64,000 nucleotides of DNA from Spartobacteria bacterium LR76 (GTDB lineage Bacteria; Verrucomicrobiota; Verrucomicrobiia; Chthoniobacterales; Terrimicrobiaceae). The stretch covers positions 434,001-498,000 of the forward strand of contig QAYZ01000014.1 of assembly GCA_003054655.1 (NCBI GenBank). Direction: 5' to 3'. Positions 17,078-33,313 of this stretch are shown here, piece after piece. The first letter of the stretch is position 1; every line of letters begins with the position of its first letter. Below the pieces are notes generated by a model that worked only from the letters and a program-made list of their open reading frames with translations, did no database searches and was not told the origin of the DNA. The position numbers and the translations under genes were made by a program.

Positions 17078-18094
17078 CTATTGAGGGCTGGGCATGGCCG
17101 TCCTTGTAAAGGACAGCGATACAGATGAACGGAGCGTCATCGCGTCCATGATCGCCAGAGCGCTTTCGCAGGAGGCCAGGAGGTACGGATGGGTGGGGAG
17201 GCTCTTGTTCTCGATATGTTCGACGAATCCGCGAAACGCCGGCGCGTATCCCATTTCGTAGAGCGCATCGTTCGGGGCGCCGTAAATCTGTGTCGGTGTG
17301 CTCCCTTTTAGCGAACGCTTTAGCAAGCCGGCAGGGAACGAGCTTTCCGGATTCGGGAATTGAATCTCCACGACTTCGTCCTCTCCCTCAAATAACAGAT
17401 ACTCGCGGTGATCCTTGCCATCGGGTATCACCGTCAGCTCGCAAAAGGCTCCAGACTCCCATTGTCCCTCCAGCGTCCATTGAGAAAAGTTCGCTCGAGC
17501 GTAATCCACACAAACCTCGGAGGGTGGAGTGTCCAGAAAGTACAGCAGCGAATCTATCAGGTGAAGAGCTGTGTATGGGAAGGATGGGACATGCCGCCCC
17601 AGCCGTTCCATGCGCCCCTCGATACGACGCAGGGCGCGAGGGGGCGTGAAGCCTCTCAAAAGGGGCGTATGTCGGCGGTTGAATGCCACGAACAGCGGAG
17701 CCGCCGATTCCTCCTCGGCCTCCCGCAGGGCGGAGAATTCATGGGGAGTCAGGGCTGGGGGTTTTTCCAGGTAAACCGGCATGTCGGCGGCGAGAGCCAG
17801 GGCTGCCGTGCTGGCGTTGGCGGTTTCTGAGGTGAGAACCATCACGGCATCCACGTCGGGGGATTGGAGGAGGTCCTCCGGACGTTGGTGCGCCGTCGCT
17901 TCAGGGAATGTACTGCACGCCAGTTGCGTGTTGCAGCTGTTCAGGTCGCATACTCCGGTCACGGTGACTTTGTCTGCCAGCTCCCGAAGGATCGGAGAAT
18001 AAATGTTCTTGAAGATACCTCCGCATCCGAGGACACCGAGCCGTATTCCGCCAGATGGCCGACTGGAAGAGAGATTCGTGGGTCGTAATATCAT
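17078..18094 (-). CDS. Gfo/Idh/MocA-family oxidoreductase
   Basis: 338 residues. The Rossmann dinucleotide motif GVLGCGGIFKNIYSP is at ~24-38. The catalytic EKPPA (the EKP motif of the family) lies near residue 133, followed by FVAFNRRHTPLL and the C-terminal beta-sheet domain. These are cytoplasmic NAD(P)-dependent sugar or polyol dehydrogenases. It lies 47 bases after the secreted beta-sandwich gene and is probably cotranscribed from the divergent promoter region next to the LacI gene. It would act on a monosaccharide released in the locus; the substrate is not determinable. Confidence 0.85.
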   Translation of the reverse strand: MILRPTNLSSSRPSGGIRLGVLGCGGIFKNIYSPILRELADKVTVTGVCDLNSCNTQLACSTFPEATAHQRPEDLLQSPDVDAVMVLTSETANASTAALALAADMPVYLEKPPALTPHEFSALREAEEESAAPLFVAFNRRHTPLLRGFTPPRALRRIEGRMERLGRHVPSFPYTALHLIDSLLYFLDTPPSEVCVDYARANFSQWTLEGQWESGAFCELTVIPDGKDHREYLLFEGEDEVVEIQFPNPESSFPAGLLKRSLKGSTPTQIYGAPNDALYEMGYAPAFRGFVEHIENKSLPTHPYLLASCESALAIMDAMTLRSSVSLSFTRTAMPSPQ

Positions 18095-18141: not shown

Positions 18142-18717
18142 TTAAGGCTTGGCCGCCGCCCCCTCCGCGACTTTGCCTATCTCAAAGTCATCGAAATCGA
18201 TCGACCCCTTGGACGTTGTGTAGGAGGTCACTCGGATCACCATTGTGATTGCAGCGGGCGGGGCGGTTGTTCCCAGGATGTGGCGTACCCATTTTCCCTG
18301 AGTGTTAAATACGGGCAACGCGGGCTTTATTGAGGTCAGGATGTTCCCTTCCGCGTCAAAAAATGCGATCTCGGCTCCCCCAACTCCATAGACCCCGGAG
18401 CCATTCTCCGAGCGCGCCCAAAAGGTGAGGAGATACTCTCCGAACGGCTCGACAGGTATCGGATCGGAGGTGATGAGGATGTTGTCTTCGGGGGCTTCGC
18501 TCTCGTCGACGATGCGAAGGCCAAAGTTACCTGACCGAGCGGCCGCTTCCTCCACCTGTACGCCCGGTTCGTTCTGGCGGACTTTCCAACTCTGGAGTTT
18601 ATCTTCAAATCCAGGATTCGCGAGTGGGGCTTCCTCGAGAGTCAGCGGGGCGGCAAAAACTACTGGACTAAGAAATGGAGCCATTAGCAGAGACGCCAGG
18701 GGGCGGGGAACTTTCAT
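18142..18717 (-). CDS. Secreted carbohydrate-binding-module-like beta-sandwich protein
   Basis: 191 residues with a signal peptide (MKVPRPLASLLMAPFLSPVVFA, cleavage near AAP). The mature part begins PLANPGFEDKLQSW and ends GSIDFDDFEIG, the start and end signatures of CBM4/9-like jelly-roll domains; LLTFWARSENGSG is the typical central strand. It is probably an exported single-domain glycan-binding protein. It is the first gene of the leftward unit, and its start is 47 bases from the conserved operator core at 18765-18778, so the LacI regulator probably controls it. Confidence 0.7.
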   Translation of the reverse strand: MKVPRPLASLLMAPFLSPVVFAAPLTLEEAPLANPGFEDKLQSWKVRQNEPGVQVEEAAARSGNFGLRIVDESEAPEDNILITSDPIPVEPFGEYLLTFWARSENGSGVYGVGGAEIAFFDAEGNILTSIKPALPVFNTQGKWVRHILGTTAPPAAITMVIRVTSYTTSKGSIDFDDFEIGKVAEGAAAKP

Positions 18718-18764
18718 GAATTCACTGAAATCAAGAAGCCCGCACTTGGCAATGGCGAGTCATC

Positions 18765-18778
18765 CTCTTACAGAAGAG
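18765..18778 (-). promoter_or_regulatory. Operator copy 1 for LacI regulator (core CTCTTCTGTAAGAG)
   Basis: On the minus strand the sequence reads CTCTTCTGTAAGAG, identical to the cores at 19830-19843 and 31520-31533. It is an inverted repeat CTCTT-N4-AAGAG and ends two bases before the LacI ATG, overlapping its ribosome binding site. That position suggests autoregulation and control of the divergent oxidoreductase unit. Regulator assignment is inferred from proximity. Confidence 0.75.
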
Positions 18779-18780
18779 TA

Positions 18781-19809
18781 ATGAGGCAGCGGATTACGCA
18801 GAAAGATGTCGCGAAGGCGGCTGGAGTGCATTCGACAACGGTCTCCATGGTTTTTCGAAATCACCCCTCAATCCCGGAGAAAACGCGACGCCGCGTCAGG
18901 GACATTGCCAGCAAGATCGGCTATACCCATGATCCGATGCTTTCCGCGCTAGCCGTCTATCGGACGAGCCAGCGGCCAGCCTCCTATCAGGGTGCCCTTG
19001 CCTGGCTGAGTAACTCTGAGGGAGGCTTCGACTGGAAAACTTCGCCGCATTTTCGCGTATACTATGAAGGCGTCCAGCGGCGGGCCAGCTCACATGGCTA
19101 TCAGATCGCGGACTTTGATATTCATGCGGCTGGTAGCAGCGCCAGGCGGGTGGCGGGCATCCTGCGCGCGCGCAACATCACCGGGGTACTGGTCTGTCCC
19201 CAGCCCGCGGCCTGCACCCGGATCGAGTTTCCCTGGGAGGATTTTTCGGCGGTGACATTCGGGTATACTCTCGAGACGCCGAAACTCCATACGGTCGCTG
19301 CCTCGTTTTACCGGGATATCCGGCAAACGATGGAGAATGTTAGAAAACGTGGATACGAAAGGATCGGCTTGGTCCTCAATCTTTCCGACGACCAGCGATT
19401 CGACCATTATGTGCTGGCCAGCTATCTGGTCGATGAGTTCCTGCGTCGTCAGACTATCTCCCTTGCTCCCTTGTTGGAAAATTACCGGGAGAAGCCTACC
19501 GTGCTGCGGAGTTGGTTCCAGAAGCATCGTCCGCAGGTGATCGTGGCTCAGGATTGGCGTGTTCTCGCGATTCTGCGCGACCAGGGCATCCGCGTTCCCG
19601 AGGATGTCGGCTTTGCTTGCGCGGGCCTGCCCCTCGGCACCAATGAGATGACAGGCGTCGTCGAAGATAGTTCTCGCATGGGTGAGGTCGCGGTGGATCT
19701 TGTCGTGGCTATGATTCAGCGTGGAGAGCGAGGCGTGCCCGACAAGGTTCAGCGCATCCTGATTGAAGGCGACTGGGTCGAGGGAAGAACCTTGGGGCGC
19801 CTGTCCTGA
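18781..19809 (+). CDS. LacI-family transcriptional regulator with atypical hinge
   Basis: 342 residues. The helix-turn-helix is at the N-terminus (ITQKDVAKAAGVHSTTVSMVFRNHPSIPEKTR), followed by a type 1 periplasmic-binding fold (YYEGVQRRASSHGY, RARNITGVLVCP, DVGFACAGLP, EDSSRMGEVAVDLVV). The region after helix 3 reads KIGYTHDPMLSALAVYR instead of the classical LacI hinge (NxxARxL). It should bind the conserved inverted repeat found next to its own start and before two PEP-CTERM genes, and respond to a sugar from the locus. The ATG at 18781 is close behind the AGAAGAG of the operator, which doubles as ribosome binding site. Confidence 0.9.
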   Translation: MRQRITQKDVAKAAGVHSTTVSMVFRNHPSIPEKTRRRVRDIASKIGYTHDPMLSALAVYRTSQRPASYQGALAWLSNSEGGFDWKTSPHFRVYYEGVQRRASSHGYQIADFDIHAAGSSARRVAGILRARNITGVLVCPQPAACTRIEFPWEDFSAVTFGYTLETPKLHTVAASFYRDIRQTMENVRKRGYERIGLVLNLSDDQRFDHYVLASYLVDEFLRRQTISLAPLLENYREKPTVLRSWFQKHRPQVIVAQDWRVLAILRDQGIRVPEDVGFACAGLPLGTNEMTGVVEDSSRMGEVAVDLVVAMIQRGERGVPDKVQRILIEGDWVEGRTLGRLS

Positions 19810-19826
19810 CTGGCAAATCCTGCCGG

Positions 19827-19846
19827 ATACTCTTCTGTAAGAGTAT
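19827..19846 (+). promoter_or_regulatory. Operator copy 2 (perfect 8-4-8 inverted repeat)
   Basis: ATACTCTTCTGTAAGAGTAT is a perfect inverted repeat of 8 bases with a CTGT spacer. It lies 44 bases before the ATG of the PEP-CTERM gene at 19891, in the promoter position of the long carbohydrate operon. It shares its 14-base core exactly with copies 1 and 3. Confidence 0.85.
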
Positions 19847-19890
19847 GGCGAGCGTTGATCTATCCTAGGATCGCGGCGATTCTCGCAAAG

Positions 19891-20841
19891 ATGAAACTCT
19901 TTCTTCCCCCCGCTTCGAAAGCACGTCGTATCTTTAGCAATCACTGCCTCCCGGCGCTTGCCTTGGCTTGGGTCTGTTGCGCTGGCCCGATGCACGCCGC
20001 CACGGTGAATTTCTCGACGGAACAGGGTTACTCATCCACGAAATCCGTGCTTAACGGCCAGCCTGCTGCCTCGCCTCTTTGGCTTGCGAGCGCCTCCTAT
20101 TCTGTAACTGCGAGCAGCGGGAGTGGAGTGGTTGTTTCAGATCGCGGCTATAGCTCGAGCAATCTAGCCGCGGTCTATCAGACGCCGGTCAGCGCTTCCC
20201 TCGGAGGCAGTGTCGGCCTGTCGCTGGACTTTAAGTTTGCAGGCGTTGGATCAGCCAATTCAACCTCCGCGAGGTATTTTGCGACTATTGATCTGGCGGC
20301 GTCATCCTCATTGACTGCGGCGACTGGTGCGACGGACAATGCAAAGTTGATTCTCTTCCGAAATGCCAACAGCAGCAGCTACCAGATTTATTTCGCGACC
20401 GAACTGAACAGCTTTAATGCAAGCACGGGATTCTCGCTTGCCTCGATCGGAGACAATGGCACAGCCGGTGATCTCACCGACAATCTTCGCCTGTCCTTGA
20501 CGATGACCAAGGGCGCTTCGAACACTGCATGGAATGTCACAGCCTCCCTCCTCAACCTGGATACATCGACTACTGTTGCCACGCTCAACCTGACCGGGAT
20601 GGGGACTTCTTCGACGTTTTATAACGCCGCATCGATTTACGGCGGGTTCAACTCGGGCTCTGCGTATTCCGGAGGGAGTGGCATCGGCACGAGCAGTTGG
20701 TCTGCTACGCAGTTTACGACCGTCCCCGAGCCAGCGGCGGTGACTTCTGTTTTGCTCGGCCTGGGAGCATTGGGCGTCCTCGGGATGGCTCGCAAACGGG
20801 TCAGCCCCGCAATCGACGCGGGTGCGGATCGTTCCGAGTAG
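19891..20841 (+). CDS. PEP-CTERM sorting-domain surface protein
   Basis: 316 residues from the ATG at 19891; an upstream TTG at 19855 would put the signal peptide too far in. The signal peptide (CLPALALAWVCCAGPMHAA) precedes a Ser/Thr/Gly-rich beta domain (LSLDFKFAGVGSAN, LRLSLTMTKGASN) resembling lectin-like jelly rolls. The C-terminus has the tripartite PEP-CTERM signal: VPEP, a hydrophobic helix (SVLLGLGALGVLGM), then ARKR. Such proteins are exported, processed by exosortase and placed on the outer surface. It is first in the operon under operator copy 2. Ligand unknown. Confidence 0.85.
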   Translation: MKLFLPPASKARRIFSNHCLPALALAWVCCAGPMHAATVNFSTEQGYSSTKSVLNGQPAASPLWLASASYSVTASSGSGVVVSDRGYSSSNLAAVYQTPVSASLGGSVGLSLDFKFAGVGSANSTSARYFATIDLAASSSLTAATGATDNAKLILFRNANSSSYQIYFATELNSFNASTGFSLASIGDNGTAGDLTDNLRLSLTMTKGASNTAWNVTASLLNLDTSTTVATLNLTGMGTSSTFYNAASIYGGFNSGSAYSGGSGIGTSSWSATQFTTVPEPAAVTSVLLGLGALGVLGMARKRVSPAIDAGADRSE

Positions 20842-20900
20842 CCGCATTCTTGCTCTTTTCCCCCGGGCTGGCTTGAATTTCCCAAGTTCTTCGTATCTCC

Positions 20901-23900
20901 ATGAGAGTTTCCTCCCCAGGAAGAAAAACGCCCTGGTTGATCGTTCTGTTGATCGTCATCCTTTCCCTGTGCGGGACTGCGTTTCTCATTTGGAAGCAGG
21001 ACCGTTCCCCTCACGAGCCTGTGTGGGTTTCTGCTGCGGAGGGATCGGTCGTTTCCCCGGACGGGCTCCTATCCTCTCCTGAGGGTCGATGTCTTCCGCC
21101 GCTTCGTGCGCCGCTCGTGCCTGCCCAGCGCTGGGTATTGCCGGGCGATCTGCTGAAGGGGACAGTTTTCGGAAGAGTGCTGGTCTTGCGAAATGAGAAC
21201 ATCGCTCCTTCCACCGCAGCCATCATGCCGGCAGCCTTGTCGGCAGCGCCGTGCTGGCGGCTGGCGATTGTTCGCTCCGAGGCGGCTGGATTTGCCGGGC
21301 GAGCCATGAGGTTGCTCTCCCGGTGGACTTGGGGAAAAGGAACGAATTCCGATGCGACCTGTGAGCTTCAGTATCTTTCCGGGCCTCTCGGCACCTCTCG
21401 TGCGGAAGTACGCTGGAATGGGAAAGTCATTGCGGAGATCAATGCGCGGTCGCCGAAGTGGGAGGTCAGGTCGGCTAGCTTCTCCATCCCGGAAGGCAGC
21501 GAAGATCGCGCAGTGCTCGAACTCATCGATGCAGACCCTCTCCCCCCCAAAGCTGATACTCAGCCGGATGGCTTTTTTGTGTCAGGCCTGCGAATTCCCC
21601 AGGGCTGGAAGTTTGTTCCTTCGGCGATCAGGATCACCGTGGCGGAGCAGTCCTATCTGCTGCCTGCTGCGAGCAGGGGCGAGCCCGTTCGTCTCTGGAC
21701 GGTCGGGGAAGGTACCGGTGCGAACCCGGAGTTCATTCCAGTCGGCGAGCGCCCGCAGATTCGCAGGCAGGATGCGGCGACGGGAGCCAGGGGGAAAGGC
21801 GATCTTGTCCTGCCAGATGTCGAGTTCGCGATTCGCAGAAATCCCGACGGCAGTCAGGAGGCAGATTTCCGCCGGGCGGTCTGCCGGATTGCCGCACCCG
21901 ATGCCTACGAGCAAGGCTCGGAGCATCCTCAGGGCCGCTCGCAGACATTTGTCTTTGACTCACCTGTTTCCGGCCAGGCGCGATTTGTCGGAAGGGCAAA
22001 GATCGCGGGAGAATGGAGCGTAGCGATCGATGGAGCGACGATCGGAACCGGAAAAGCCGTAAAAGACCCCGAGCAATGGACCGACATCGCCGTCGATGGC
22101 ATCCCGGTGAAAGCTGGAGTCAACAGGCTCACGATAACGGCGATTCGCGGAAAGACATTCTGGGATTTCTTCGCTCTGGATCTGATGGACTCCAGCTTCC
22201 TGATCAAGGGATACACCTATTCCGGTTGGCCCGTCGCGCCGCCCGCAGCCGGGCCTCGAACGAATGCGCCTATCTCATTCGACCCCGGCGTGGTTGTTCA
22301 GGTCCGGGGGGAAAGCCGGGTGCAGCCCCGTGTGTTCGGGATCACCGACCATAATCCCCCGCGCATCCTGGATAACAAAGCGCTCCGCGGCGCGATCCAG
22401 GCGATGAATCTCGGCGCCATCAAGGGGCCCGATCACATCGTCGACGACACTGCTCCTCAGGAGCGTATTGACTCACTTCCTGCGCTCGATGCCTATTATC
22501 ATTCCGACGTGCCCTTGTCTCAATATCAGACGATGTGGAACGAGGCGTCCCGGGGATGGAAGCGCCAGCTTCGGGAGGCCGGACGGGCCCTGTCTCTCGA
22601 GCGCATCGCCGTCCTCAGCGGCATTCCGAAGTGGGCGGAGTTTCCGGGAAGCAAAGGCGGCCACTCCGGCGTACCAAATGATCTGAAACTCGCCGCTCGC
22701 ATGGTCAGCGGCGGATTGGAGACCATTCGCCCCTTGTGGCCCGAGCTTCGGATGGGGTACCTGTGGAATGAGCCGGACAGTTGGTGGCGTTGGGACAAAG
22801 ATATCATCGGTGCAGGGTATCAGGGCTATAGCGACTATTTTCGTGCTTACCTGAGCACGGTCCGAAAAGAGCTCGACCTGCGCTGTCCGGGGTTTCTGCT
22901 CGGGGCGCCCTCCACTTATGCGCCTCCCATCAATTTTGTCGGCTACTCGGTCAACCTCGAGAAATGGAAGACTTGGTGGAACCCGCTGCTCCGCGAAAGC
23001 TGGAGAGACCTAAACTTTTTCGATTTTCACGCCTATGGTTTTGATCCCCGCCAGATCCTGGCCAATCTCGACGTTCTAGCTGCGGCGGGAGAGTCGCTTT
23101 ATCGCGAACGCAAGCCAGTCACCATGACCGAGGTGGGCTATGCGGAGTCCCTGATCCAAAAGGCCTTCGGGATTCAGTCGGAGCCCGCCTGCTGGCGGTA
23201 TCGGAGCCTCCCGTATGCCCGGTACCTGCTCGCGATGGCGGCGGAGCCCGATCGCATCTGGGCCGCTTTGTATTACGATCTTAACAATCACGAGTACGGC
23301 ATGTTTCGGCAGGGCGGTATGGAACCCACCTCCATGGCCGACGTCTTCCTGGCTCTGGCACCGATGCGGGGAGATATCCTCGGGTCCGACTCGCAGGACC
23401 CTGCAATCAACTGGCTAGCCACCCGATCAGGGAAGTCGGTTTTCCTCGCCATTGTCACGGATGAGCGCAATGGCGGAAGCCTCCCCATACGCTTGCCGGG
23501 GAGATTCAATGGAACCCTCGAGGTCCGGCGTCTCTGCCTCAATCCCGCATTGTCCGATGTTGTCGCCACAACGGAGCAGGTCCCTCTGGTGGCGGGGAAG
23601 GCCGATCTCGCACCCATGCCCGGCAGCCTCATCGTGGTCCGTTTCGACCTGGGCGACATCCCCGCGACCGGTCACGCGAGGCGCGTGAACGAGACATTTG
23701 CCGATCAGTTCGTGGAAAAGCTGGATGCCGCTCAACCTGCTCTCCGTTGGACGCTTCGCTGCGAGAAACCAGCCTCGCCCGATGATGGCGTCGTATTGCG
23801 GATCAGCAGTTTCGGCCCGGAGGCGGTCGGAAACGTCGCATTCCACTGGAACGGGCATCCGCTGGAGGTCAAAGGCGCCTTCCGCTCGGAGGTGGAGATA

Positions 23901-24029
23901 CCGGCAGAATGGATCTCCGGGACCAATGTCCTCGAAGCGAGGCTAAGGAACCCGGAATCACGGATACCCTTTGTGTTAGGCGCGGCGTCCCTGCGGCTTT
24001 CAGAATCAGTGCTAATCGGAGGAGAATGA
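20901..24029 (+). CDS. Large membrane-anchored clan GH-A-like glycoside hydrolase
   Basis: 1042 residues. An N-terminal signal-anchor (WLIVLLIVILSLCGTAFLI) is followed by ~450 residues of beta domains, including a jelly-roll (FVGRAKIAGEWSVAIDGA). A TIM-barrel follows with YLWNEPD (E624, acid/base) and VTMTEVGYAE (E744, nucleophile), the two strand-end glutamates of clan GH-A; FFDFHAYGFD is a substrate-lining strand. A C-terminal beta domain follows. GH39 or GH86-like families are the nearest I can suggest, without certainty. It would cut a polysaccharide outside the cytoplasm. The stop overlaps the next start by 4 nt. Confidence 0.72.
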   Translation: MRVSSPGRKTPWLIVLLIVILSLCGTAFLIWKQDRSPHEPVWVSAAEGSVVSPDGLLSSPEGRCLPPLRAPLVPAQRWVLPGDLLKGTVFGRVLVLRNENIAPSTAAIMPAALSAAPCWRLAIVRSEAAGFAGRAMRLLSRWTWGKGTNSDATCELQYLSGPLGTSRAEVRWNGKVIAEINARSPKWEVRSASFSIPEGSEDRAVLELIDADPLPPKADTQPDGFFVSGLRIPQGWKFVPSAIRITVAEQSYLLPAASRGEPVRLWTVGEGTGANPEFIPVGERPQIRRQDAATGARGKGDLVLPDVEFAIRRNPDGSQEADFRRAVCRIAAPDAYEQGSEHPQGRSQTFVFDSPVSGQARFVGRAKIAGEWSVAIDGATIGTGKAVKDPEQWTDIAVDGIPVKAGVNRLTITAIRGKTFWDFFALDLMDSSFLIKGYTYSGWPVAPPAAGPRTNAPISFDPGVVVQVRGESRVQPRVFGITDHNPPRILDNKALRGAIQAMNLGAIKGPDHIVDDTAPQERIDSLPALDAYYHSDVPLSQYQTMWNEASRGWKRQLREAGRALSLERIAVLSGIPKWAEFPGSKGGHSGVPNDLKLAARMVSGGLETIRPLWPELRMGYLWNEPDSWWRWDKDIIGAGYQGYSDYFRAYLSTVRKELDLRCPGFLLGAPSTYAPPINFVGYSVNLEKWKTWWNPLLRESWRDLNFFDFHAYGFDPRQILANLDVLAAAGESLYRERKPVTMTEVGYAESLIQKAFGIQSEPACWRYRSLPYARYLLAMAAEPDRIWAALYYDLNNHEYGMFRQGGMEPTSMADVFLALAPMRGDILGSDSQDPAINWLATRSGKSVFLAIVTDERNGGSLPIRLPGRFNGTLEVRRLCLNPALSDVVATTEQVPLVAGKADLAPMPGSLIVVRFDLGDIPATGHARRVNETFADQFVEKLDAAQPALRWTLRCEKPASPDDGVVLRISSFGPEAVGNVAFHWNGHPLEVKGAFRSEVEIPAEWISGTNVLEARLRNPESRIPFVLGAASLRLSESVLIGGE

Positions 24030-24772
24030 TGAATAATCGGTCTTTGATCACGTTGGAAAAAAAGCGCGCCTGCGGGGCAAGCACACTGCTCGAGCTGCTT
24101 GCCGGTGTCGCGATTGTCGCGCTTCTTGCCGCGCTGGTGATTCCGGCGGTGCGCGGGATGACGGAGAAAGGCAAGACCATGCAGCGCATGGCCAATCTCA
24201 AGGCTATTGCTCATGCCTGCCAGGTCTATGCGGCGGACAATGACGGCAGCCTGCCCTTCTTGTGTTCCTCGGCGGCTGGCGGGTGGGCCAAGCCCTTTTG
24301 GTACAACACCATTTCGCCGTACCTTCCGCAGAAGCAGGTGCAGGTGGTGGGTTCCGGCCAGGTAAAGAGTTTAAACTACTCGGCGCTGGTCTGTCCGTTT
24401 GTTCCCTCAGGCCAGCATGGGGGGAGCGACTACGCCGGCAGCAGCGGCGTCTTCTTTGCTCCGGGCGAGTCTCCGGGCGGCCCCGCCATGCGCGTCGCTG
24501 CCATAGAGAATCCTTCCCAGGTGGTTCTAGCCGTCAGTGCGGAAGTCCGAAGCTCGGGCCTCCCGAGCTGGTATGTTAATGCCCGGTACTACGCCAACTT
24601 TCCCGATTCCTCGAGCAATCTTCCCAGCGCAAAGTGGACCCGCAGCCCCAACATCGCGGCGGTTTTTGTCGATGGGCATTATGAGGAAATCTCCCCGGCA
24701 AAATTTCGGGAAAATCGAGCCACTTACATGATTCCCAAGAACCTTCTTCAAGCCGGTTGGCTGACTCAATAA
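24026..24772 (+). CDS. Pseudopilin-like protein of carbohydrate operon
   Basis: 248 residues from the ATG at 24026, with GGAGGAG two bases before it; the longer upstream frame is not needed. The leader KKRACGA|STLLELLAGVAIVALLAALVIP has Ala at -1 and Glu at +5, a prepilin-type signal frequent in the PVC group. After the helix, MQRMANLKAIAHACQVYAADNDGSLP is the usual pseudopilin alpha-helix, and the C-terminus has AAVFVDGHYEEIS, as in verrucomicrobial prepilin-like proteins. It probably sits in the inner membrane or a pseudopilus. It is translationally coupled to the hydrolase upstream; function in polysaccharide handling is inferred from recurrence of this pairing. Confidence 0.8.
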   Translation: MMNNRSLITLEKKRACGASTLLELLAGVAIVALLAALVIPAVRGMTEKGKTMQRMANLKAIAHACQVYAADNDGSLPFLCSSAAGGWAKPFWYNTISPYLPQKQVQVVGSGQVKSLNYSALVCPFVPSGQHGGSDYAGSSGVFFAPGESPGGPAMRVAAIENPSQVVLAVSAEVRSSGLPSWYVNARYYANFPDSSSNLPSAKWTRSPNIAAVFVDGHYEEISPAKFRENRATYMIPKNLLQAGWLTQ

Positions 24773-26932
24773 GTGAAACGCGATTACACCATGTCTACTC
24801 TCCGGCAAGGTCGGGTTGATTCGGAGACACCCCTCTCTATCGGCGCTGGAGCAGAGTTTCCGCGCGAATCGGGGTGCCTTTTCTCTTCCGCTGAGGAGTT
24901 CGCCAGTTCCGCTGCGCCCTCTTCGGAGTTGCTTCCCTCCACCGAGGCCCTCTCGCTCATACAGACCCCGCGTTCTCTGGAGGCCATTTTCGCCAGCGGA
25001 ATCTCGGGAGCCGATCAGCAGGCCATCGACACTTTTATGAGTCTTGCCTGGGCTGCCGTGGCCTGGCGGCGCACGGGCGCTTTGCGGCTGGCGGAGATTA
25101 TCAAGGGCTGGGAACCCCTTCTGCAAACCCAGGAGCCGATGCGCATCACTGGCTTCGCCCTGGAGAATCGCGACCTGATGGTGGGACACGCCCTGCTGGC
25201 TTTTGCTATCATGGAAGATGTCCTGCGGGGTGTTTTTGACCCGGCTTTTGAGACAGCCTTGCGCCGGGCCTTGCTTTTCCAGGCAGCGCAAACCTATGCC
25301 GATCTCACCGATCGCGAGATCTTCCCAGCCTACTCCTACGAGCAGAACCACATGATCATCCCTGTTTGCGGATTGGGGATCGCTGCGATGTCCCTTGGCA
25401 GCGGAGGTGAGTCCGTTTCGTGGGGGAGCTTTGCCCGGGATTTTCTCACACGTAGTTTTGAGGTGATCGGGCAGGACGGCTGGTTTTTCGAGGGCGTGGG
25501 TTACTGGAATTTCACGATGCAGTTTCCGATCTGCTATGCGCTCGCTCTCAAGCAGACCACGGGAGAAAGCCTCTTTATGGAAGCCCCCTTCAAAAATGCC
25601 GGTCTTTATATCGCGCATATGGTGCTTCCCGACGCTCGGTTCGTTTTTGACTTTGCGGACTGGGGGCCGCGTGTGGAGCCGGATGGGACTGGGTTCCAGC
25701 CAGGATACGATCAGCCATGGCATTCGCAGCCAACGTATCTTCCACGTGCGCTGGTAAATGTCCTCGCCCGCGAGCAGGGGGGCGGCTTGTGTCGTCGCCT
25801 GCTGGCACGGCTGCCGATCAGCCGGTCGCCTTCCGCGCTGGACGCCTCGCTCTCGCTTCTGCTGCCGGAGAGCGCGGGGTGCGACGACAGCGGGACCGAG
25901 CCTCCCGTGTCGCACTATTTCCCCGATATGGAGGTGCTGCACTGGCGCGGCGGCTGGGAGGATCCGGGCGCGACTGCGCTGGCCTTCAAGTCCGGGCCCC
26001 CCGCCGGCCATCACCTGGCCCGCCTGTTGGAGTGCGATCCCGCCTGGCATCTGGAGCTTGGCCACGCTCATCCCGACGCGGGTTCTTTTCTCTTGTTCGC
26101 GCATGGTGTCTTCCTGGCGAACGACACGGGATACACAGGCAAAAAGGAAACCGCCGATCACAACTCCCTCCTTGTCGACGGCATCGGGCAGCATCGAGGC
26201 GGAACGCCATGGAGCACCTTCAACGCGAAGCCTTATCGTGAGTACGACCAGATACGCATGGAACACGTCTGGCATGGCCCGAGGGTGGCCGCTGCCACGG
26301 CGGTCTTCACCGCCGCCTATGATGACGCGCTCGAGCTCACGGATGTCCGGCGAAGCCTCATTCTCGTGGACGGCCGGTTCCTGATCGTTTCCGATACGCT
26401 GCGCTCGACGCTCGAGCATGAGTATGAATGGCGTCTCCACACCGACCGGGCTGCCATGCAGGCCGGGGATCGCCGCTTTGTCATGGAAAACGGTCCCGGT
26501 CGTCTCATTCTCGAAACCCTCGGCTCGCCGGTCGCGCATCGCGTCGCTCCTACGGTGGTGGAGACCGAGTGCTTTTCCCCGACTCGCTCCCGCCCGCAAC
26601 AGCGGGGTTTCCATCTCGCATTGACTTCGCCCCGCACCCGGGATTTTCGGTTTCTCGTCGCCGTGGGCATTCAATCTTCCGTCAGTTCCGAGCCGACATT
26701 CTCCGCCCGGCTTGATCCCAGCGGACGGATGGAACTCTCCGACGCTCAGGGAAGCTGTACGGTCTGGCTCGGCGGGGCGGGCAGTGAGGAACTCGACGGT
26801 GCCTACGCCTGCCATCTCCGAGACGCCGCGGACGGGACTCTTTTTGCCGGGATGCTCGGTCGCTCCCTGACTGCTCCCGGCTTGGCCTTGCGTTCGCCTG
26901 GAGGCGGATTTGAAAGCGTCTGTCGGGCCTGA
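24773..26932 (+). CDS. Heparinase II/III-family polysaccharide lyase
   Basis: 719 residues. The N-terminal alpha/alpha toroid includes YSYEQNHMIIPVCGLG and DGWFFEGVGYWNF, which supply the Asn/His/Tyr surroundings of the active site. The C-terminal beta-sandwich begins with LGHAHPDAGSFLLFAHGVFLA and TADHNSLLVDGIGQ, the heparinase II/III signature. Relatives cleave uronic-acid polysaccharides by beta-elimination (alginate, heparin, ulvan-like). No signal peptide is visible, so it may act on imported oligosaccharides. GTG at 24773 directly follows the previous stop; ATG at 24791 is possible. The PL family is not assignable by eye. Confidence 0.82.
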   Translation: MKRDYTMSTLRQGRVDSETPLSIGAGAEFPRESGCLFSSAEEFASSAAPSSELLPSTEALSLIQTPRSLEAIFASGISGADQQAIDTFMSLAWAAVAWRRTGALRLAEIIKGWEPLLQTQEPMRITGFALENRDLMVGHALLAFAIMEDVLRGVFDPAFETALRRALLFQAAQTYADLTDREIFPAYSYEQNHMIIPVCGLGIAAMSLGSGGESVSWGSFARDFLTRSFEVIGQDGWFFEGVGYWNFTMQFPICYALALKQTTGESLFMEAPFKNAGLYIAHMVLPDARFVFDFADWGPRVEPDGTGFQPGYDQPWHSQPTYLPRALVNVLAREQGGGLCRRLLARLPISRSPSALDASLSLLLPESAGCDDSGTEPPVSHYFPDMEVLHWRGGWEDPGATALAFKSGPPAGHHLARLLECDPAWHLELGHAHPDAGSFLLFAHGVFLANDTGYTGKKETADHNSLLVDGIGQHRGGTPWSTFNAKPYREYDQIRMEHVWHGPRVAAATAVFTAAYDDALELTDVRRSLILVDGRFLIVSDTLRSTLEHEYEWRLHTDRAAMQAGDRRFVMENGPGRLILETLGSPVAHRVAPTVVETECFSPTRSRPQQRGFHLALTSPRTRDFRFLVAVGIQSSVSSEPTFSARLDPSGRMELSDAQGSCTVWLGGAGSEELDGAYACHLRDAADGTLFAGMLGRSLTAPGLALRSPGGGFESVCRA

Positions 26933-26937
26933 CCGCC

Positions 26938-29769
26938 ATGCCGGAATCTGAATTTCCTTATCCCGAGGCCTGCTGGATCTCCTCGCCCGAGCAGGAGCAC
27001 GATGAAATCAACGCCCGGTTCGTCTTCGTGCACGACCTTGTCCTGACGGCGCAGGAACCCGTCTCCGTGGCGATCACGGCGGATTCCCGCTACTGGCTCG
27101 CGATCAATGGCGCACCCGTAGCCAGCGGTCCCGCGCGGGGTTATCGTGACCTGGCGTTTTTCGACACGGTGGATGTGTCCGAATTTCTCCGGCCCGGATC
27201 GAACCGCATCGAGATCACGGTGACGCATTGGGGTGTCGACACCTTTCAATATCAGCGGGGCGTCTCTGGCCTTCTGGCGGCGTTTTACTCCGGGGACAAG
27301 GTGCTGCTGCTTTCCGGCGAGGGGTGGCGTGTGCGGCGGGCCGTCGAGTGGTGTCAGCACGTGCCGCGCATCTCCATCCAGCAGGGCTTCGAGGAGCATT
27401 TCGACGCCCGGGTGGCCGCAGCGGTTCCGAAAACCGCTTGGCGCACGGCGATGGTGCGGGCCGAGACCTCTCGCACCCTGCATCCCCGGGCCACCGAAAA
27501 TCTCGTCAGGACGCCCCGAATCTTCCAGCGTACGGTGCTGATCGAGCGGCTGGCCCTGGCACCTTCCAGAGGTTGGTCGCTCCCGGTTCGCCGGCACTTT
27601 TCTCCGTTTCCTCGCAGCGCCAACCAGCATGGCATGGCGGGTGCGCTTGCGAGCCTTTTTTGTAGTGACTCTCCCACACGGCTCCGTCTCCACATAATCG
27701 GGCCGGAAGTACGGGTCTGGATCGATGGTGTGGAACTCGATATGATCGTCGACCAGGATTTGCGCATCGGTGAGCGCGATCTCGATCCGGGGGAGCATTG
27801 GGTCGGGATCGCCCTTTGCACTCCCTGCGATCACGCGGCCGACCTTGCCTGGTCATGGCACGGAGACGGCGTATGGCGCTGCCCTTTGCCCGGCGGTGGC
27901 AGGGACGATGTCTGGGTGAGCTCTGGCCCGCTGTGGTCGCGCGTGTCGGATACCAACTGTTTTATGCGTCGCGACGGTTCCGGTGACGAGGCCTATCTGC
28001 CGCCTTACGGTTCCGTGTTTTCCGCAGAGGAGCCCTTTCTTCGCGAGAGAGTTGCTTCCATGGCCCGCTGCCGGGATCTGCCAGGGTTTCTTGAGGCGGC
28101 CGGAACGAATGTCCGCATTCTCGGGGAGGACGATTTCTCCGAGGTCGACGCCTATCTGGCGCTTCGCACGGATGAGCCGCTGGAGGACGCTCCGGTTGAT
28201 TCCTTCGGCGTGTTGCCCGGTCCGCTGGGCTTTAGCGGGACACCTTGCCGAGTAATTCTCGATCTCGGTGGGATGAGTGTCGGCTATTTCGAGATGGAGC
28301 TTGAGTGCCCGAAGGGAACCATCGTGGATGGCTTCTTTTTTGAACATCTCGACGCCGCGAGCGGTGTTCGCATCCAGTATCTTCACCAGGACGGTGGCCT
28401 GGTCTATCGCAACTCCTTCCGTTACACCGCCCACGCGGGCGTGAATGTCTTCCATTCCCGGCAGCGGCGCGGCGGGCGTTATGTCCTGCTCGTTTTTCGC
28501 GGTCCGGCGCGGCTGCTCAAGGCCCGCGTGATCGAGGAAACATATCCGCCGCACGCCCAAGGCTCATTTCACTGCTCGGACGACCGGCTGAACCGCATCT
28601 ACGAGATCTCCCGGCGCACCCTGCTTCTGTGTATGGAGGACACGTTCACCGACTGCCCCACCTACGAGCAGGCCTTGTGGGTGGGCGACGCGCGCAACGA
28701 GGCCCTCTTCGCCTGCGAAGCATTCGGGGCTTACGATCTCGCCCGGCATTGCCTCTGGCTTGCGGCGCATTCGCTCGAGGAATCGCCTTTCGTCGCCTGC
28801 CAGTGCCCCAGCGGTTGGGATGTCATCATTCCCTCTTTTAGTTTCTTATGGGGCATTTCTGTCTGGGATGTTTTCTGGCAGACCGGCGACCGCGAGTTTC
28901 TTGGCGAGATGTTCCCTGCTCTCCGCGAAAGCCTTGCCATTGCGTTGCGGCGATGCACCGATCGCGGATTGTTCCGCGCGCCAGCCTGGAACTTCTTTGA
29001 CTGGACCTCCATCGACCAGGACCGGCAGACCGTACTGCATAATAGTATGCTTCTGTCTGGTGCTCTCGACGCGGCGATGAAGGCCGCGCGCGAGCTCGGG
29101 CGGGTGGATGACTGGCGGGACTTTTCCCTCTCCAGGGAGACGCTTGTCGCCGCAATCTCACAGCTATGGGACCCCGCGAAGGGAGCCTGGCGCGATTCCG
29201 TTCACGATGATGGCTCGCTGAGCGATGGGATCAGTCAGCACACATCCTTCCTCGCCTTGCTCCATGATCTCGCGGAGGGGGCTCAACGCGAGGCTGCCAT
29301 CCGCAACTGCCTCGCGCCCCCTGCAGCGATGACGCGCGTGGGCAGCCCTCACGCGATGTTTTTCCTGCTGGACGCTTTGCGCAAGGAGGGCTGCGGGGAC
29401 GGGGCGCTGGCGCTGCTGCGCGACTTTTGGGGGCGGATGCTCGACGCGGGCGCGGACACATTTTGGGAAATGATCCATCCTCCGGGCTCGCAATTTCCCA
29501 CTCGCAGCCATTGTCATGGATGGTCGAGTTCCCCGGTTTATCTTCTGCCTCGTCTGCTCTTTGGCATTGAGTGCATGGAGCCTGGCTGGCGCAGAGTGGT
29601 CCTCCATCCGGCCGCATACGGACTGGAGCATGCCAGCGCGCAGATCCACACTCCGCATGGCTTGCTTACTGTCGCGTGGGAGAAAGCTCCTGACGGTTCG
29701 CTCGACGTGCGATTCGACGCCCCCCCGGCGATCTCCGTCGTTGTCCAATCCTCAATCAACTCACCATGA
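26938..29769 (+). CDS. GH78-like alpha-L-rhamnosidase
   Basis: 943 residues. The N-terminal beta domain (FVFVHDLVLTAQEPVSVAITADSRYW...) and second jelly-roll match Bac_rhamnosid_N. The catalytic (alpha/alpha)6 barrel has TDCPTYEQALWVGDARNEALF, the GH78 counterpart of DCPQRDE..GWTGDA, and PAWNFFDWTSID. It ends with ADTFWEMI...HCHGWSSSP, then a short beta domain. It releases L-rhamnose by inversion. No signal peptide is evident, so it probably acts in the cytoplasm on imported material. It starts 5 bases after the lyase stop and overlaps the isomerase start by 4 nt. Confidence 0.87.
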   Translation: MPESEFPYPEACWISSPEQEHDEINARFVFVHDLVLTAQEPVSVAITADSRYWLAINGAPVASGPARGYRDLAFFDTVDVSEFLRPGSNRIEITVTHWGVDTFQYQRGVSGLLAAFYSGDKVLLLSGEGWRVRRAVEWCQHVPRISIQQGFEEHFDARVAAAVPKTAWRTAMVRAETSRTLHPRATENLVRTPRIFQRTVLIERLALAPSRGWSLPVRRHFSPFPRSANQHGMAGALASLFCSDSPTRLRLHIIGPEVRVWIDGVELDMIVDQDLRIGERDLDPGEHWVGIALCTPCDHAADLAWSWHGDGVWRCPLPGGGRDDVWVSSGPLWSRVSDTNCFMRRDGSGDEAYLPPYGSVFSAEEPFLRERVASMARCRDLPGFLEAAGTNVRILGEDDFSEVDAYLALRTDEPLEDAPVDSFGVLPGPLGFSGTPCRVILDLGGMSVGYFEMELECPKGTIVDGFFFEHLDAASGVRIQYLHQDGGLVYRNSFRYTAHAGVNVFHSRQRRGGRYVLLVFRGPARLLKARVIEETYPPHAQGSFHCSDDRLNRIYEISRRTLLLCMEDTFTDCPTYEQALWVGDARNEALFACEAFGAYDLARHCLWLAAHSLEESPFVACQCPSGWDVIIPSFSFLWGISVWDVFWQTGDREFLGEMFPALRESLAIALRRCTDRGLFRAPAWNFFDWTSIDQDRQTVLHNSMLLSGALDAAMKAARELGRVDDWRDFSLSRETLVAAISQLWDPAKGAWRDSVHDDGSLSDGISQHTSFLALLHDLAEGAQREAAIRNCLAPPAAMTRVGSPHAMFFLLDALRKEGCGDGALALLRDFWGRMLDAGADTFWEMIHPPGSQFPTRSHCHGWSSSPVYLLPRLLFGIECMEPGWRRVVLHPAAYGLEHASAQIHTPHGLLTVAWEKAPDGSLDVRFDAPPAISVVVQSSINSP

Positions 29770-30761
29770 AAAACCGCTACTCCGTCATCCTCGGCAATCT
29801 CGGCAACACGTGCGACCGCTTCCTGTCCAGTGGGTATAAAGAGGTCTTGCCCAAGCCGGAAATGATCCGAAAGGCGGCAGCCATCCCGGGTATCGAGGGA
29901 ATAGAGCTTGTCGGCACCTGGGACATTACCGAAAGCAATGCCCGCGAGATCAAAGCCGACCTCGACGCGGTGGGTCTCGCTTGCGTCTCGATCATCCCCG
30001 ACCTGTTTTCGCAGAAACGCTGGGGCCTCGGCAGCCTCTCCGCCAAGTCCGCCGACACCCGTCGACAGGCTCTCGAAGAATGCCGCACCGTCTCGCGCAC
30101 GGCCATGGAGATCGGCTGCCCGCTTATCAATCTCTGGCTCGGACAGGACGGCTACGACTATCCGCTCACCGCCGACTACCGCTCCCAGCGCGGCTGGCTC
30201 ACGGAGAACATCGCCACCATCGCAGCGGAGTTTCCCGATCTCCGTTATGCGCTTGAGTACAAGCCCAAGGAACCTCGCAATTTTTCCTTCCAGGCTCGTG
30301 CGGCGGATACCTTGCTCATGGCGTGCGAGACGGCATTGCCCAATGTCGGGGTGTGCATCGATGTCGGGCACGCTTTCATGGCAGGGGAAAACGTTGCCGA
30401 GTCCGCCGTGCTGCTCCAGCACCATGGGGAAAAGCTTTTCCACATGCATTTCAACGACAACTACCGTTCATGGGACGACGACATGATCGTGGGTTCCGTT
30501 CACCTCGTCGAGTACCTCGAGCTTCTCTTCTGGCTTGCTGAGACCGGTTACTCCGGGTGGTACTCGATGGACCAATATCCTTATCGCGAAGATGGCGCTG
30601 CGGCGGTGTGCGAGAGCGTGGCGCTCTTGCGCTCCCTGGAGGAATTGCTCACTCCGGAACGGCGCGGGCAACTTCGAGATCTCATCGTACAGGGAGACGC
30701 GACCCGGTCGACACGCTGGATGCGAGAGCTCCTTTTTGGCTCTCGCCTCCTGCCAGCTTAG
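29766..30761 (+). CDS. Xylose-isomerase-like TIM-barrel sugar isomerase/epimerase
   Basis: 331 residues of AP_endonuc_2 / sugar isomerase fold. Metal-ligand-type motifs are EYKPKEP (Glu), IDVGHAFMAG (Asp, His) and HMHFNDN (His, Asp), in barrel order. The EYKPxEP motif also occurs in L-rhamnose isomerases of the Pseudomonas type, which fits the GH78 enzyme encoded 4 nt upstream; I therefore infer conversion of L-rhamnose or a related sugar. A generic sugar-phosphate epimerase is the alternative. No signal peptide, so cytoplasmic. Confidence 0.8.
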   Translation: MKNRYSVILGNLGNTCDRFLSSGYKEVLPKPEMIRKAAAIPGIEGIELVGTWDITESNAREIKADLDAVGLACVSIIPDLFSQKRWGLGSLSAKSADTRRQALEECRTVSRTAMEIGCPLINLWLGQDGYDYPLTADYRSQRGWLTENIATIAAEFPDLRYALEYKPKEPRNFSFQARAADTLLMACETALPNVGVCIDVGHAFMAGENVAESAVLLQHHGEKLFHMHFNDNYRSWDDDMIVGSVHLVEYLELLFWLAETGYSGWYSMDQYPYREDGAAAVCESVALLRSLEELLTPERRGQLRDLIVQGDATRSTRWMRELLFGSRLLPA

Positions 30762-30773
30762 CCGCCAGTTGAC

Positions 30774-31475
30774 ATGAAGCGACTCTTCCGCCGCATCGAG
30801 GAAAAGGCCAGGGATGTCTCGCAGCCGCCGGTGACCATTGTCGCTTTCGGCGATAGTGTGACCCAGGGAGTCATGGAGCATCGAGTACTCGACAGCACTC
30901 ATGTCTATCACCGGTTGCTGCAGGATCATCTCGAGTCGTTCTTTCCGACGACTACTTTTTCCACGTTCAATGCCGGAGTCTCCGGGGACAGTGTTGCGAA
31001 CGCCCTTGGGCGTCTGGACCGTGATGTCTTGAGCCGCGATCCTGACCTTGTCCTGATCGCATTCGGTTTGAACGACTCGCTCCAGGGTGAAGGGGGACTT
31101 TCCGAGTTCTCCGCAAGCCTCGCCGCCATGATTCGCATCATAAAGGAGAAGACCGACTCAGCCGTGCTGGTGCTGACCCCGCCTTTCATGGCGCGCAAGC
31201 CCGGTCCACGCATTCACCCGGATCACCTGTCCATCGCCGATCGCATCATGGAAACACAGAATACCGGGATGCTCGCGCGGTACGTCTCCGCCATCAGGCA
31301 CGTCGCCGGGCAGCAGAATGTTCCGCTAGCCGATGTCCATCGCGAGTGGGAGCGCCTGGCCGGAAGCGGTCTCGATACTGATGTCTGGCTTATCAATGGC
31401 TTGAATCATCCCGATCCTCGCGGTCATCGGCTGGCAGCACACCTCGTCTTTCATACTCTGCTTTCGAACCGGTGA
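30774..31475 (+). CDS. SGNH/GDSL-family esterase
   Basis: 233 residues. Block I AFGDSVTQG (catalytic Ser), block II NAGVSGDS (Gly), block III FGLNDS (Asn) and block V GLNHPDPRGHRL (His) are present, although the Asp that normally precedes block V by three residues is Gly, with Asn before it. Likely a carbohydrate O-acetylesterase of the rhamnogalacturonan-acetylesterase type. No signal peptide. It is the last gene of the run starting at 19891, 12 bases after the isomerase. Confidence 0.85.
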   Translation: MKRLFRRIEEKARDVSQPPVTIVAFGDSVTQGVMEHRVLDSTHVYHRLLQDHLESFFPTTTFSTFNAGVSGDSVANALGRLDRDVLSRDPDLVLIAFGLNDSLQGEGGLSEFSASLAAMIRIIKEKTDSAVLVLTPPFMARKPGPRIHPDHLSIADRIMETQNTGMLARYVSAIRHVAGQQNVPLADVHREWERLAGSGLDTDVWLINGLNHPDPRGHRLAAHLVFHTLLSNR

Positions 31476-31518
31476 ATTTCGTTCATCTCCTCGAAGCAGG
31501 ATGCCGTGATTCGGAACG

Positions 31519-31534
31519 GCTCTTCTGTAAGAGC
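31519..31534 (+). promoter_or_regulatory. Operator copy 3
   Basis: GCTCTTCTGTAAGAGC is a perfect 6-4-6 inverted repeat carrying the same 14-base core as copies 1 and 2. It lies 51 bases before the ATG of the second PEP-CTERM gene, so that gene and those after it should start from their own LacI-controlled promoter. Confidence 0.82.
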
Positions 31535-31585
31535 TAATGGTCTCTTGTCTCTCCCAAACCTCCAACCTATTGAGATTACAACCCC

Positions 31586-32515
31586 ATGAAAATAAACACC
31601 CCCTCGACGTTAAGGATATCCCTCCTGTGCACCGTTTTGCTCAACGGTGTCCTATGCTCCCATGCCGCCACGGTCTACAGTTATCTGCCTGCCAGCGGTA
31701 GCTGGGGGACTGCGGCAAACTGGAACACCGGCTCCTACCCGAATGACACAAATGACTCCAGTGTCACCATCGGAAGCGGCAAGACCGTGAATGTGAACGA
31801 CGGGAGTTTTTCTGCCGGGTATATCTTTGTCGGCTCCAGCGGGGTGCTCACGGCCTCAGGAGCAGGTCACGGCCTCACCATTGGCAACACTGTTGGCGGC
31901 TCCGGGCAGAGCATCGCTCTTTCAGGCAATGGCGGTCGTTTTACCATCTCCGACGGAGCTGTCGTGCAGGGCGCGGGAACTCTGATCATTGGGGATGCGT
32001 CGACCCCGGGCACAGTGACTCATCCCCGGCTGGAGATCACGAAGGCGAGCGCGACTTTCTCAACGCTTCAATTCATCGGAGGCAACTCCAATGTCCAGGA
32101 CCAGGTGGTGTTGAACGAAGGCTCCAGCCTTACACTTGGCAGCATCACCACCGGCTCGGCCCAGGGCGGTTATCTGATCTTTAATGGTGGTGCCACCGGC
32201 TTCGGTTCTCTGGTCATTGGAGCTTTCGCTGCCAACAAGGTGGTGAATCTTCAGATAAACTCGGGATCCTATCTCGCCAACGGCAGCTTTACCCTCATCG
32301 ATGCGACCTCATGGTCGGGGGCATTCTCCTCCGTCCTGTTCGATGGATCGGCATATACCTTTGGCACCGATGTCACCGTGGGCGATCGCACCTGGAACAT
32401 CAACCGCGTGGGGAGCGATCTCGTCCTGAATGTCGTTCCGGAGCCTGCTACGTGGTGCCTTCTCGGGTCGGGAATGTTCGCCGTTCTTTACGGGCTTCGC
32501 CGCCGTCGGCACTAA
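31586..32515 (+). CDS. PEP-CTERM protein with autotransporter-like beta repeats
   Basis: 309 residues. Signal peptide (LRISLLCTVLLNGVLCSHAA). The body is Gly/Ser/Thr-rich, with WGTAANWNTGSYPNDTNDSSVTIG and repeated FTISDGAVVQGAGTLIIGD-like turns, the pattern of right-handed beta-helix or passenger-associated repeats. It ends VPEP, a hydrophobic segment (TWCLLGSGMFAVLYGL) and RRRRH, a complete PEP-CTERM sorting signal. It should be displayed on the cell surface after exosortase processing. Operator copy 3 precedes it. Confidence 0.85.
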   Translation: MKINTPSTLRISLLCTVLLNGVLCSHAATVYSYLPASGSWGTAANWNTGSYPNDTNDSSVTIGSGKTVNVNDGSFSAGYIFVGSSGVLTASGAGHGLTIGNTVGGSGQSIALSGNGGRFTISDGAVVQGAGTLIIGDASTPGTVTHPRLEITKASATFSTLQFIGGNSNVQDQVVLNEGSSLTLGSITTGSAQGGYLIFNGGATGFGSLVIGAFAANKVVNLQINSGSYLANGSFTLIDATSWSGAFSSVLFDGSAYTFGTDVTVGDRTWNINRVGSDLVLNVVPEPATWCLLGSGMFAVLYGLRRRRH

Positions 32516-32587
32516 CCTGGTTTGCGCCGTGCGGAAGTGCGCGGTGCTGAACGTTCGCAGAAATCTAAACGCGCAGAATTTCTATTG

Positions 32588-33298
32588 ATGAAGAACACAC
32601 TGGTTTATTTGGTCACCGCCTCCGTCTCCATGGGATGTCTTTTCGCCCAGGGATTCTCGGAAAACTTTGAGAAAGCCGCCGATGGTTCCGCGCTGGGCTC
32701 ACACAGCCTGGTTGGATGGCATCAGGATGGGAATGCATCGGAAAAGGGAGGTTTCTATACTGGCGAGGCGGCGTACTCTTCCGGCCGAGGGCTTCGGCTT
32801 GCTGAGCGCGAGACCTTTGCCGTCTTTCAGACAGAGAAACCATTCTGGACAAAAATCGATGGTGCCGCGTCGTTTTCGATGACCTTCCGCTTTACCGGGA
32901 AAATGCCCATCGACATTTGCCTGCATAACGGAAGCACTTCCTTCGGCTTCTATATTAGCATCAATAACCGGAAGGGAGAGCTTGTACTGTCGCAGGGCGG
33001 GGGCGAAAGTGCCTTCCGTGGCGATACGGCGGTTCATTCTCTGGCCGGGCTGGAGGAGGGCGTCTGGTATACCCTGGAGATACGGGATATCAACCTGGAT
33101 GCCGACCCGGCATCCGGGAAGATCTACCTTTATGAAGCCTCGTCTCCTTCCAATCTCCTGGTGGACGGTTTGAACATTGTCGCCTCCGGCAATCCGGCTC
33201 TCGCTGGTCTGCGTACCTTTGTGGTGCGGCGCTTCGGCTCGACGACCGACCTCCTGGACATCGATGATGTTAGTGTGAAGGCGGCTACTGCTCAATAG
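32588..33298 (+). CDS. Secreted lectin/LamG-like protein
   Basis: 236 residues from the ATG at 32588, where a signal peptide begins (NTLVYLVTASVSMGCLFAQ). The mature protein opens GFSENFEKAADGSALG and contains SFSMTFRFTG, GVWYTLEIRDINLDAD and LLDIDDVSV, the strand pattern of concanavalin-A-like jelly-roll domains. It has no PEP-CTERM tail and no recognisable catalytic residues, so glycan binding is the best guess. It lies between the PEP-CTERM gene and a large hydrolase, 15 bases before the latter. Confidence 0.65.
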   Translation: MKNTLVYLVTASVSMGCLFAQGFSENFEKAADGSALGSHSLVGWHQDGNASEKGGFYTGEAAYSSGRGLRLAERETFAVFQTEKPFWTKIDGAASFSMTFRFTGKMPIDICLHNGSTSFGFYISINNRKGELVLSQGGGESAFRGDTAVHSLAGLEEGVWYTLEIRDINLDADPASGKIYLYEASSPSNLLVDGLNIVASGNPALAGLRTFVVRRFGSTTDLLDIDDVSVKAATAQ

Positions 33299-33313
33299 AC
33301 CTTTTTCCCGATC

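What the first reader, a model, noticed from the sequence alone, without database searches (positions are those of the whole stretch)
18765..31534. Three identical 14-bp inverted-repeat operators define a LacI regulon
CTCTTCTGTAAGAG occurs exactly at 18765-18778 (minus), 19830-19843 and 31520-31533. One copy overlaps the LacI ribosome binding site; the others lie 44-52 bases before PEP-CTERM genes. Copy 2 extends to a perfect 8-4-8 repeat. Exact recurrence only at promoters in one locus is strong evidence for a common operator.
Basis: seen in the sequence. Interest (0 to 1): 0.75.

Follow-up and report, generated by a model that had tools for sequence, protein, structure and literature searches.

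The report
LacI operators upstream of sugar-locus promoters
Three identical DNA tags mark the three promoters of one polysaccharide-degradation gene cluster and are very probably the binding sites of its own LacI-type regulator; their position just upstream of each promoter, repeated across many related regulators, suggests that this branch of the LacI family mostly switches genes on, whereas the textbook LacI switches them off.

Summary
CTCTTCTGTAAGAG occurs at the three stated places and nowhere else in the 4.75-Mb genome, even allowing one mismatch; no other genome of 384 searched in its class has more than one copy. Copy 1 serves the divergent CBM_4_9 gene as well as lacI. There is therefore one site per transcription unit of a polysaccharide cluster in Verrucomicrobiota.

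The LacI assignment is supported by parallel: other LacI paralogues have their own clustered, different 5-N4-5 palindromes beside them.

The unexpected part is position. In nine operator families a TTG (-35) starts exactly 11 bp after the 14-mer: 24 of 81 site-directions. Families not used to find the rule gave 21 against a mean of 1.85 (p=1e-15); other Verrucomicrobiota gave 8 of 30 against 0.45. A -10 (xAxxxT) follows 17 bp later. The operator centre is thus near -53.5, activator geometry as in CcpA-activated genes, while the lacI-proximal site covers lacI's own predicted -10. Predicted: local LacI activator plus autorepressor; untested experimentally.

The parts
18765..18778 (-). operator copy 1 (CTCTTCTGTAAGAG read on -): upstream of the CBM_4_9 gene promoter; covers the predicted -10 of lacI
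19827..19846 (+). operator copy 2, perfect 8-4-8 palindrome ATACTCTT-CTGT-AAGAGTAT (core 19830-19843)
31520..31533 (+). operator copy 3 (extends to 6-bp arms GCTCTT...AAGAGC)
18781..19809 (+). lacI-family regulator, 342 aa (PF00356 + PF13377); one of about 42 LacI-family matches in the genome
18746..18774 (+). predicted lacI promoter TTGGCA (18746-18751) -17- TACAGA (18769-18774), ATG 6 nt later; the -10 lies inside operator copy 1
   Evidence: read from sequence; inference
18724..18752 (-). predicted promoter of the CBM_4_9 gene: TTGCCA (12 bp after operator copy 1) -17- TTCAGT, ATG 6 nt later
19855..19883 (+). predicted promoter of PEP-CTERM gene 1: TTGATC (11 bp after copy 2) -17- GATTCT, ATG 7 nt later
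31545..31573 (+). predicted promoter of PEP-CTERM gene 2: TTGTCT (11 bp after copy 3) -17- TATTGA, ATG 12 nt later
18142..18717 (-). secreted CBM_4_9 protein (191 aa), first gene of the leftward unit
17078..18094 (-). GFO/IDH/MocA-family oxidoreductase, second gene of the leftward unit
19891..20841 (+). PEP-CTERM protein 1, start of the main rightward unit (the ORF caller's TTG start at 19855 is the predicted -35, not the start codon)
20901..31475 (+). rest of the main unit: 1042-aa protein without a family, a short protein with a pseudopilin-like N-terminus, heparinase II/III-like enzyme, alpha-L-rhamnosidase, sugar isomerase-like TIM barrel, GDSL esterase
31586..36346 (+). third unit: PEP-CTERM protein 2, 258-aa protein, 1010-aa protein without a family

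Best explanation
The three 14-mers are operators of the LacI-type protein encoded between two of them. The regulator is a local one: it binds one site in front of each of the three transcription units of a polysaccharide-degradation cluster. At these units it binds just upstream of a sigma70-type promoter (operator centre near -53.5, -35 starting 11-12 bp after the site, -10 17 bp further, start codon within about 12 nt after the -10), so it most probably activates them by touching RNA polymerase. The same copy 1 lies over the predicted -10 of lacI, so binding there would repress lacI itself. SHOWN: sites, uniqueness, orientation, spacing, the statistical -35/-10 signal, and the same arrangement for other LacI paralogues. 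INFERRED: that this LacI binds, that the effect is activation, the effector (a sugar from the degraded glycan) and the transcription starts.
For: Uniqueness in the genome and class. One site per unit, same orientation. The sister LacI (38% identical, L073) has about six CTCTATTGTnnGAG sites clustered around it, conserved in a second species. Unsupervised scans recover different 5-N4-5 palindromes beside other LacI paralogues, while 20 control loci without LacI give none below p=1e-5. TTG at offset 11: window plus sister, mean promoter score far above any other offset, 0 of 5000 shifts as high; nine families 24/81, next highest 6; families F3-F9 only, 21 against mean 1.85, p=1e-15; other Verrucomicrobiota 8/30 against 0.45, p=3e-8. 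Where T.G stands at offset 11, A at 35 and T at 39 in 26 of 45 each, i.e. a -10 with a 17-bp spacer. In B. subtilis, cre boxes upstream of -35 give activation by the LacI-family protein CcpA, those over the promoter give repression, and the effect depends on helix face (PMC3463425).
Against: No binding, expression or transcription-start data. Promoters are predicted and the -10 boxes are weak. Copy 1 has its TTG at 12, not 11. For the window alone the promoter signal is only p=0.037, and L075 (F3) shows no significant peak while F4 and F5 peak elsewhere in the full promoter model. Two targets of the sister regulon that have a Shine-Dalgarno sequence lack a clean TTG at 11. Two earlier tests in other Verrucomicrobiota, with few and distant LacI genes, were negative. 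Activation is inferred from position; CcpA can repress from upstream of a promoter by blocking another activator (lev operon, PMC3463425).
Confidence: 0.62

Rival explanations
1. Classical LacI repression: the same LacI binds the three sites and blocks transcription until a sugar from the glycan releases it; the promoters lie upstream of or across the sites, and the downstream TTG is incidental.
For: Most LacI-family proteins are repressors and more than 75% of their sites lie 140-30 bp before the start codon, as here (PMC4052901). The lacI-proximal sites do cover predicted lacI -10 boxes. One sister promoter scores well across its operator (TTTACT-18-TCTACT).
Against: No consistent -35/-10 upstream of or across the sites in the window; the strongest fixed promoter signal is downstream, to the base, in many independent families. 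A repressor centred at -53.5 would not block the predicted promoter.
Confidence: 0.28
2. The sites belong to another DNA-binding protein, for example the AraC-like regulator with a periplasmic-binding domain at 38260-39408, or to an alternative sigma factor.
For: That regulator lies just beyond the cluster.
Against: A different palindrome pair stands beside that gene (39505, 50249). The 14-mer flanks lacI on both sides, and other LacI genes show the same arrangement with different palindromes while the -35 stays constant, which does not fit a single sigma factor.
Confidence: 0.06
3. The 14-mer acts in RNA, as a small hairpin near the ribosome-binding site of lacI and in the leaders of the other genes.
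For: Copy 1 overlaps the lacI ribosome-binding region.
Against: 5-bp stem only; in the other units the site lies upstream of the predicted transcription start; sister families keep their position relative to the -35.
Confidence: 0.03

Closest known systems
Local LacI-family sugar regulons (Ravcheev et al. 2014, PMC4052901)
   Same: Adjacent LacI-type regulator, even palindromic operators, local carbohydrate targets, a site at the regulator's own gene.
   Different: Central base pair is TG, not the CG found in 1173 of 1303 regulators. Verrucomicrobia are not mentioned there (term search), and the fixed operator-to-(-35) spacing is not in the passages read.
CcpA of Bacillus subtilis (LacI family, dual regulator)
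   Same: Activates when the operator lies upstream of -35 (ackA, pta, ilvB), represses when it overlaps the promoter; helix-face dependent (PMC3463425).
   Different: CcpA is a single global regulator with HPr as co-factor and mostly represses; here many paralogues with local targets share one activating geometry. Matches the ccpA model only weakly.
Cra/FruR of E. coli (LacI family; from general knowledge, not checked in a paper here)
   Same: Dual action depending on operator position.
   Different: Global carbon-flow regulator; no relation to PEP-CTERM or polysaccharide clusters; weak HMM match only.

Membership tests
LacI/GalR family regulator | N-terminal LacI helix-turn-helix | tested here: met
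   PF00356, 43.7 bits, cut-off 27
LacI/GalR family regulator | C-terminal periplasmic-binding-like sensor domain | tested here: met
   PF13377, 44.1 bits, cut-off 26.5
LacI/GalR family regulator | even-length palindromic operator, recurrent near own gene | tested here: met
LacI/GalR family regulator | central CG base pair of the operator (90% of studied members; common, not obligatory) | tested here: not met
   centre is TG here; 49 of 1303 regulators in PMC4052901 also have another centre; some paralogues' operators do have CG
LacI/GalR family regulator | the protein binds the operator | not testable with these tools
   needs EMSA or DAP-seq
LacI-type activator (CcpA-like mode of action) | operator upstream of -35 at a fixed, helix-phased distance | tested here: met
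   (predicted promoters)
LacI-type activator (CcpA-like mode of action) | loss of the regulator lowers target transcription | not testable with these tools
   needs knockout or reporter
CcpA orthologue | passes the ccpA equivalog cut-off | tested here: not met
   TIGR01481 27.3 bits against cut-off 442

The most novel reading that the evidence does not exclude
Verrucomicrobiota have expanded a large set of LacI-type transcription activators (about 40 LacI-family genes in this genome), each controlling its own polysaccharide locus from an operator at a base-exact position (centre about -53.5, 11 bp before -35), in front of promoters whose transcripts start at or near the start codon, while repressing their own genes from a site over the lacI -10.
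Probability: 0.55. Interest if true: 0.75.

Novelty: new variant of a known kind. Interest (0 to 1): 0.62.

Why it matters
If true, it gives a simple sequence rule (5-N4-5 palindrome, 11 bp, TTG, then a -10 17 bp further) with which LacI operators, promoters and target genes can be read directly from Verrucomicrobiota genomes, where I found no paper on LacI regulons in the library searched. It would also show that a family known for repression has been turned into an expanded set of activators for glycan-degradation loci. It makes the regulation of PEP-CTERM and polysaccharide-degrading genes testable locus by locus.

Tried and rejected
The search for related loci with the single LacI protein found nothing; an alignment worked. 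The palindrome scan without an intergenic filter drowned in GC-rich coding palindromes. The full promoter score per family is only weakly significant for the window alone (p=0.037) and not for L075 or L073 alone; the peaks at offset -34/-37 in the sister regulon are partly the motif itself. A genome-wide leaderless signal (TTG at -35/-34 from ATG) outside the regulons is weak (p=0.09 and 0.04). First tests outside the genus (short loci, family/order loci) were negative; the generic palindrome test found 0 at offset 11, whereas the recurrent-site test in the same loci gave 8. L237 (simple-sequence repeat array) and L243 (GC-only palindromes) were dropped after inspection; with them the count is 8 of 80 with a maximum of 9 at another offset, due to the array. 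Ideas rejected: sigma-54 promoter (spacing wrong), RNA hairpin, control by the AraC-like regulator. No paper on LacI regulons of Verrucomicrobiota was found.

Full report
WHAT IS THERE. The three 14-mers are real and at the stated coordinates. In the whole genome (4.75 Mb) no other place matches even with one mismatch, and the perfect CTCTT-N4-AAGAG arms occur only once more. Among 384 genomes of the class, six others carry a single copy each, as chance would give, and none carries two. Three exact copies within 12.8 kb, all intergenic, are not chance.

ANATOMY. The sites mark the three apparent transcription units of a polysaccharide cluster: (a) leftward CBM_4_9 protein and MocA-type oxidoreductase; (b) rightward PEP-CTERM protein, 1042-aa protein, heparinase-like enzyme, alpha-L-rhamnosidase, sugar isomerase-like protein, GDSL esterase; (c) rightward PEP-CTERM protein 2, 258-aa and 1010-aa proteins. 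The LacI gene lies between sites 1 and 2. All three copies have the same orientation relative to the gene 47-52 bp downstream; copy 1 also ends 2 bp before the lacI ATG.

WHO BINDS. The genome has about 42 LacI-family matches. The sister LacI L073 (38% identical) is surrounded by CTCTATTGTnnGAG sites, conserved in a second species. Unsupervised intergenic scans recover further, different 5-N4-5 palindromes next to other LacI paralogues: CTTATnTGnATAAG, TTCTACCTGTAGAA, GTCAAACTGTTGAC, GTTTAGTCGTAAAC, GTTATCACGATAAC, CGCATCAATATGCG and CGCATGACGTTGCG. Twenty control loci without LacI gave no family below p=1e-5. The sister regulator, whose recognition helix (HVTT) resembles the window's (HSTT), has nearly the same half-site (TAGAG against AAGAG). 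Few regulators could be compared this way, so it is offered as consistent, not as proof.

WHERE IT BINDS. In the window and sister regulon a sigma70-like promoter sits at a fixed place, with the -35 starting 11 bp after the 14-mer (12 for copy 1); the mean score at offset 11 is 2.36 and the next best 0.06. I then tested the rule on data not used to find it. Operator families F3-F9, both directions, no gene filter: TTG at offset 11 in 21 of 106, mean elsewhere 1.85, maximum 6, p=1e-15; one genome per family 16 of 62 against 1.0. All nine families: 24 of 81. Where T.G stands at offset 11, A at offset 35 and T at 39 occur in 26 of 45 each, which is a -10 box with a 17-bp spacer. Held-out LacI loci of the genus gave 5 against 0.97, though one other offset also reached 5. 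In other Verrucomicrobiota (Opitutia, a Methylacidiphilaceae bin, Chthoniobacteraceae) recurrent sites gave 8 of 30 against 0.45, p=3e-8. Sites are not fully independent (orthologues, paralogues), so the p-values are guides; the one-genome-per-family counts are the safer figures.

HOW IT LIKELY WORKS. With the -35 at -35 to -30, the operator spans -60 to -47, centre -53.5. In the LacI family an operator upstream of -35 is the activating position: CcpA activates ackA, pta and ilvB so, and represses from sites over the promoter (PMC3463425). The base-exact spacing and fixed orientation suggest direct contact with RNA polymerase. At the regulator genes the opposite holds: in the window the site covers the predicted lacI -10 (TTGGCA-17-TACAGA-6-ATG), and in L078 and L140 the operator likewise covers the -10 of TTGACT-CAAACT-6-ATG. 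So the model is activation of the glycan genes plus autorepression. In many targets the start codon lies 44-54 bp after the operator, i.e. at or a few bases after the predicted transcription start, so short-leader or leaderless messages are likely; a genome-wide sign of this outside the regulons is weak. Paralogous regulons also sit at glycan genes: GH2 enzyme, PEP-CTERM protein, polysaccharide lyase, SASA esterase, heparinase-like protein.

LIMITS. No binding or expression data exist here. The direction of regulation, effector and transcription starts are inferred. In the full promoter model the window alone reaches only p=0.037 and some families show no peak at offset 11. Two early tests in more distant genomes were negative.

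VERDICT. Local LacI operator set: about 0.9 likely. Activator at the targets: about 0.65. Known kind (LacI local regulon) in a variant position that appears to be shared across Verrucomicrobiota.

Noticed in passing
window 39505-39522 and 50249-50266: Two similar 18-bp palindromes (AAAACAATGATCGGTTTT, AAAAGAATGATCGATTTT), the first next to the AraC-like regulator with a periplasmic-binding domain at 38260-39408: possible operator pair of that regulator.
   Followed up: no
L073 (G000:C9:353700-373600), L124/L069 (G001): Sister LacI regulon with about six CTCTATTGTnnGAG sites, left half invariant and right half variable, conserved between two species.
   Followed up: partly
L070-L073, L076, L079: Homologues (29-35% identity) of the window's CBM_4_9 gene occur near six other LacI paralogue loci, hinting at a duplicated LacI plus CBM module.
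   Followed up: no
L237 10700-10770 and 14830-15030: Dense array of TTTGAGATTTGA-type simple repeats near a LacI gene in an Opitutaceae bin.
   Followed up: no
window 18746-18752: TTGGCAA serves as the predicted -35 of lacI on one strand and of the divergent CBM_4_9 gene on the other: two back-to-back promoters sharing one -35 stretch.
   Followed up: partly
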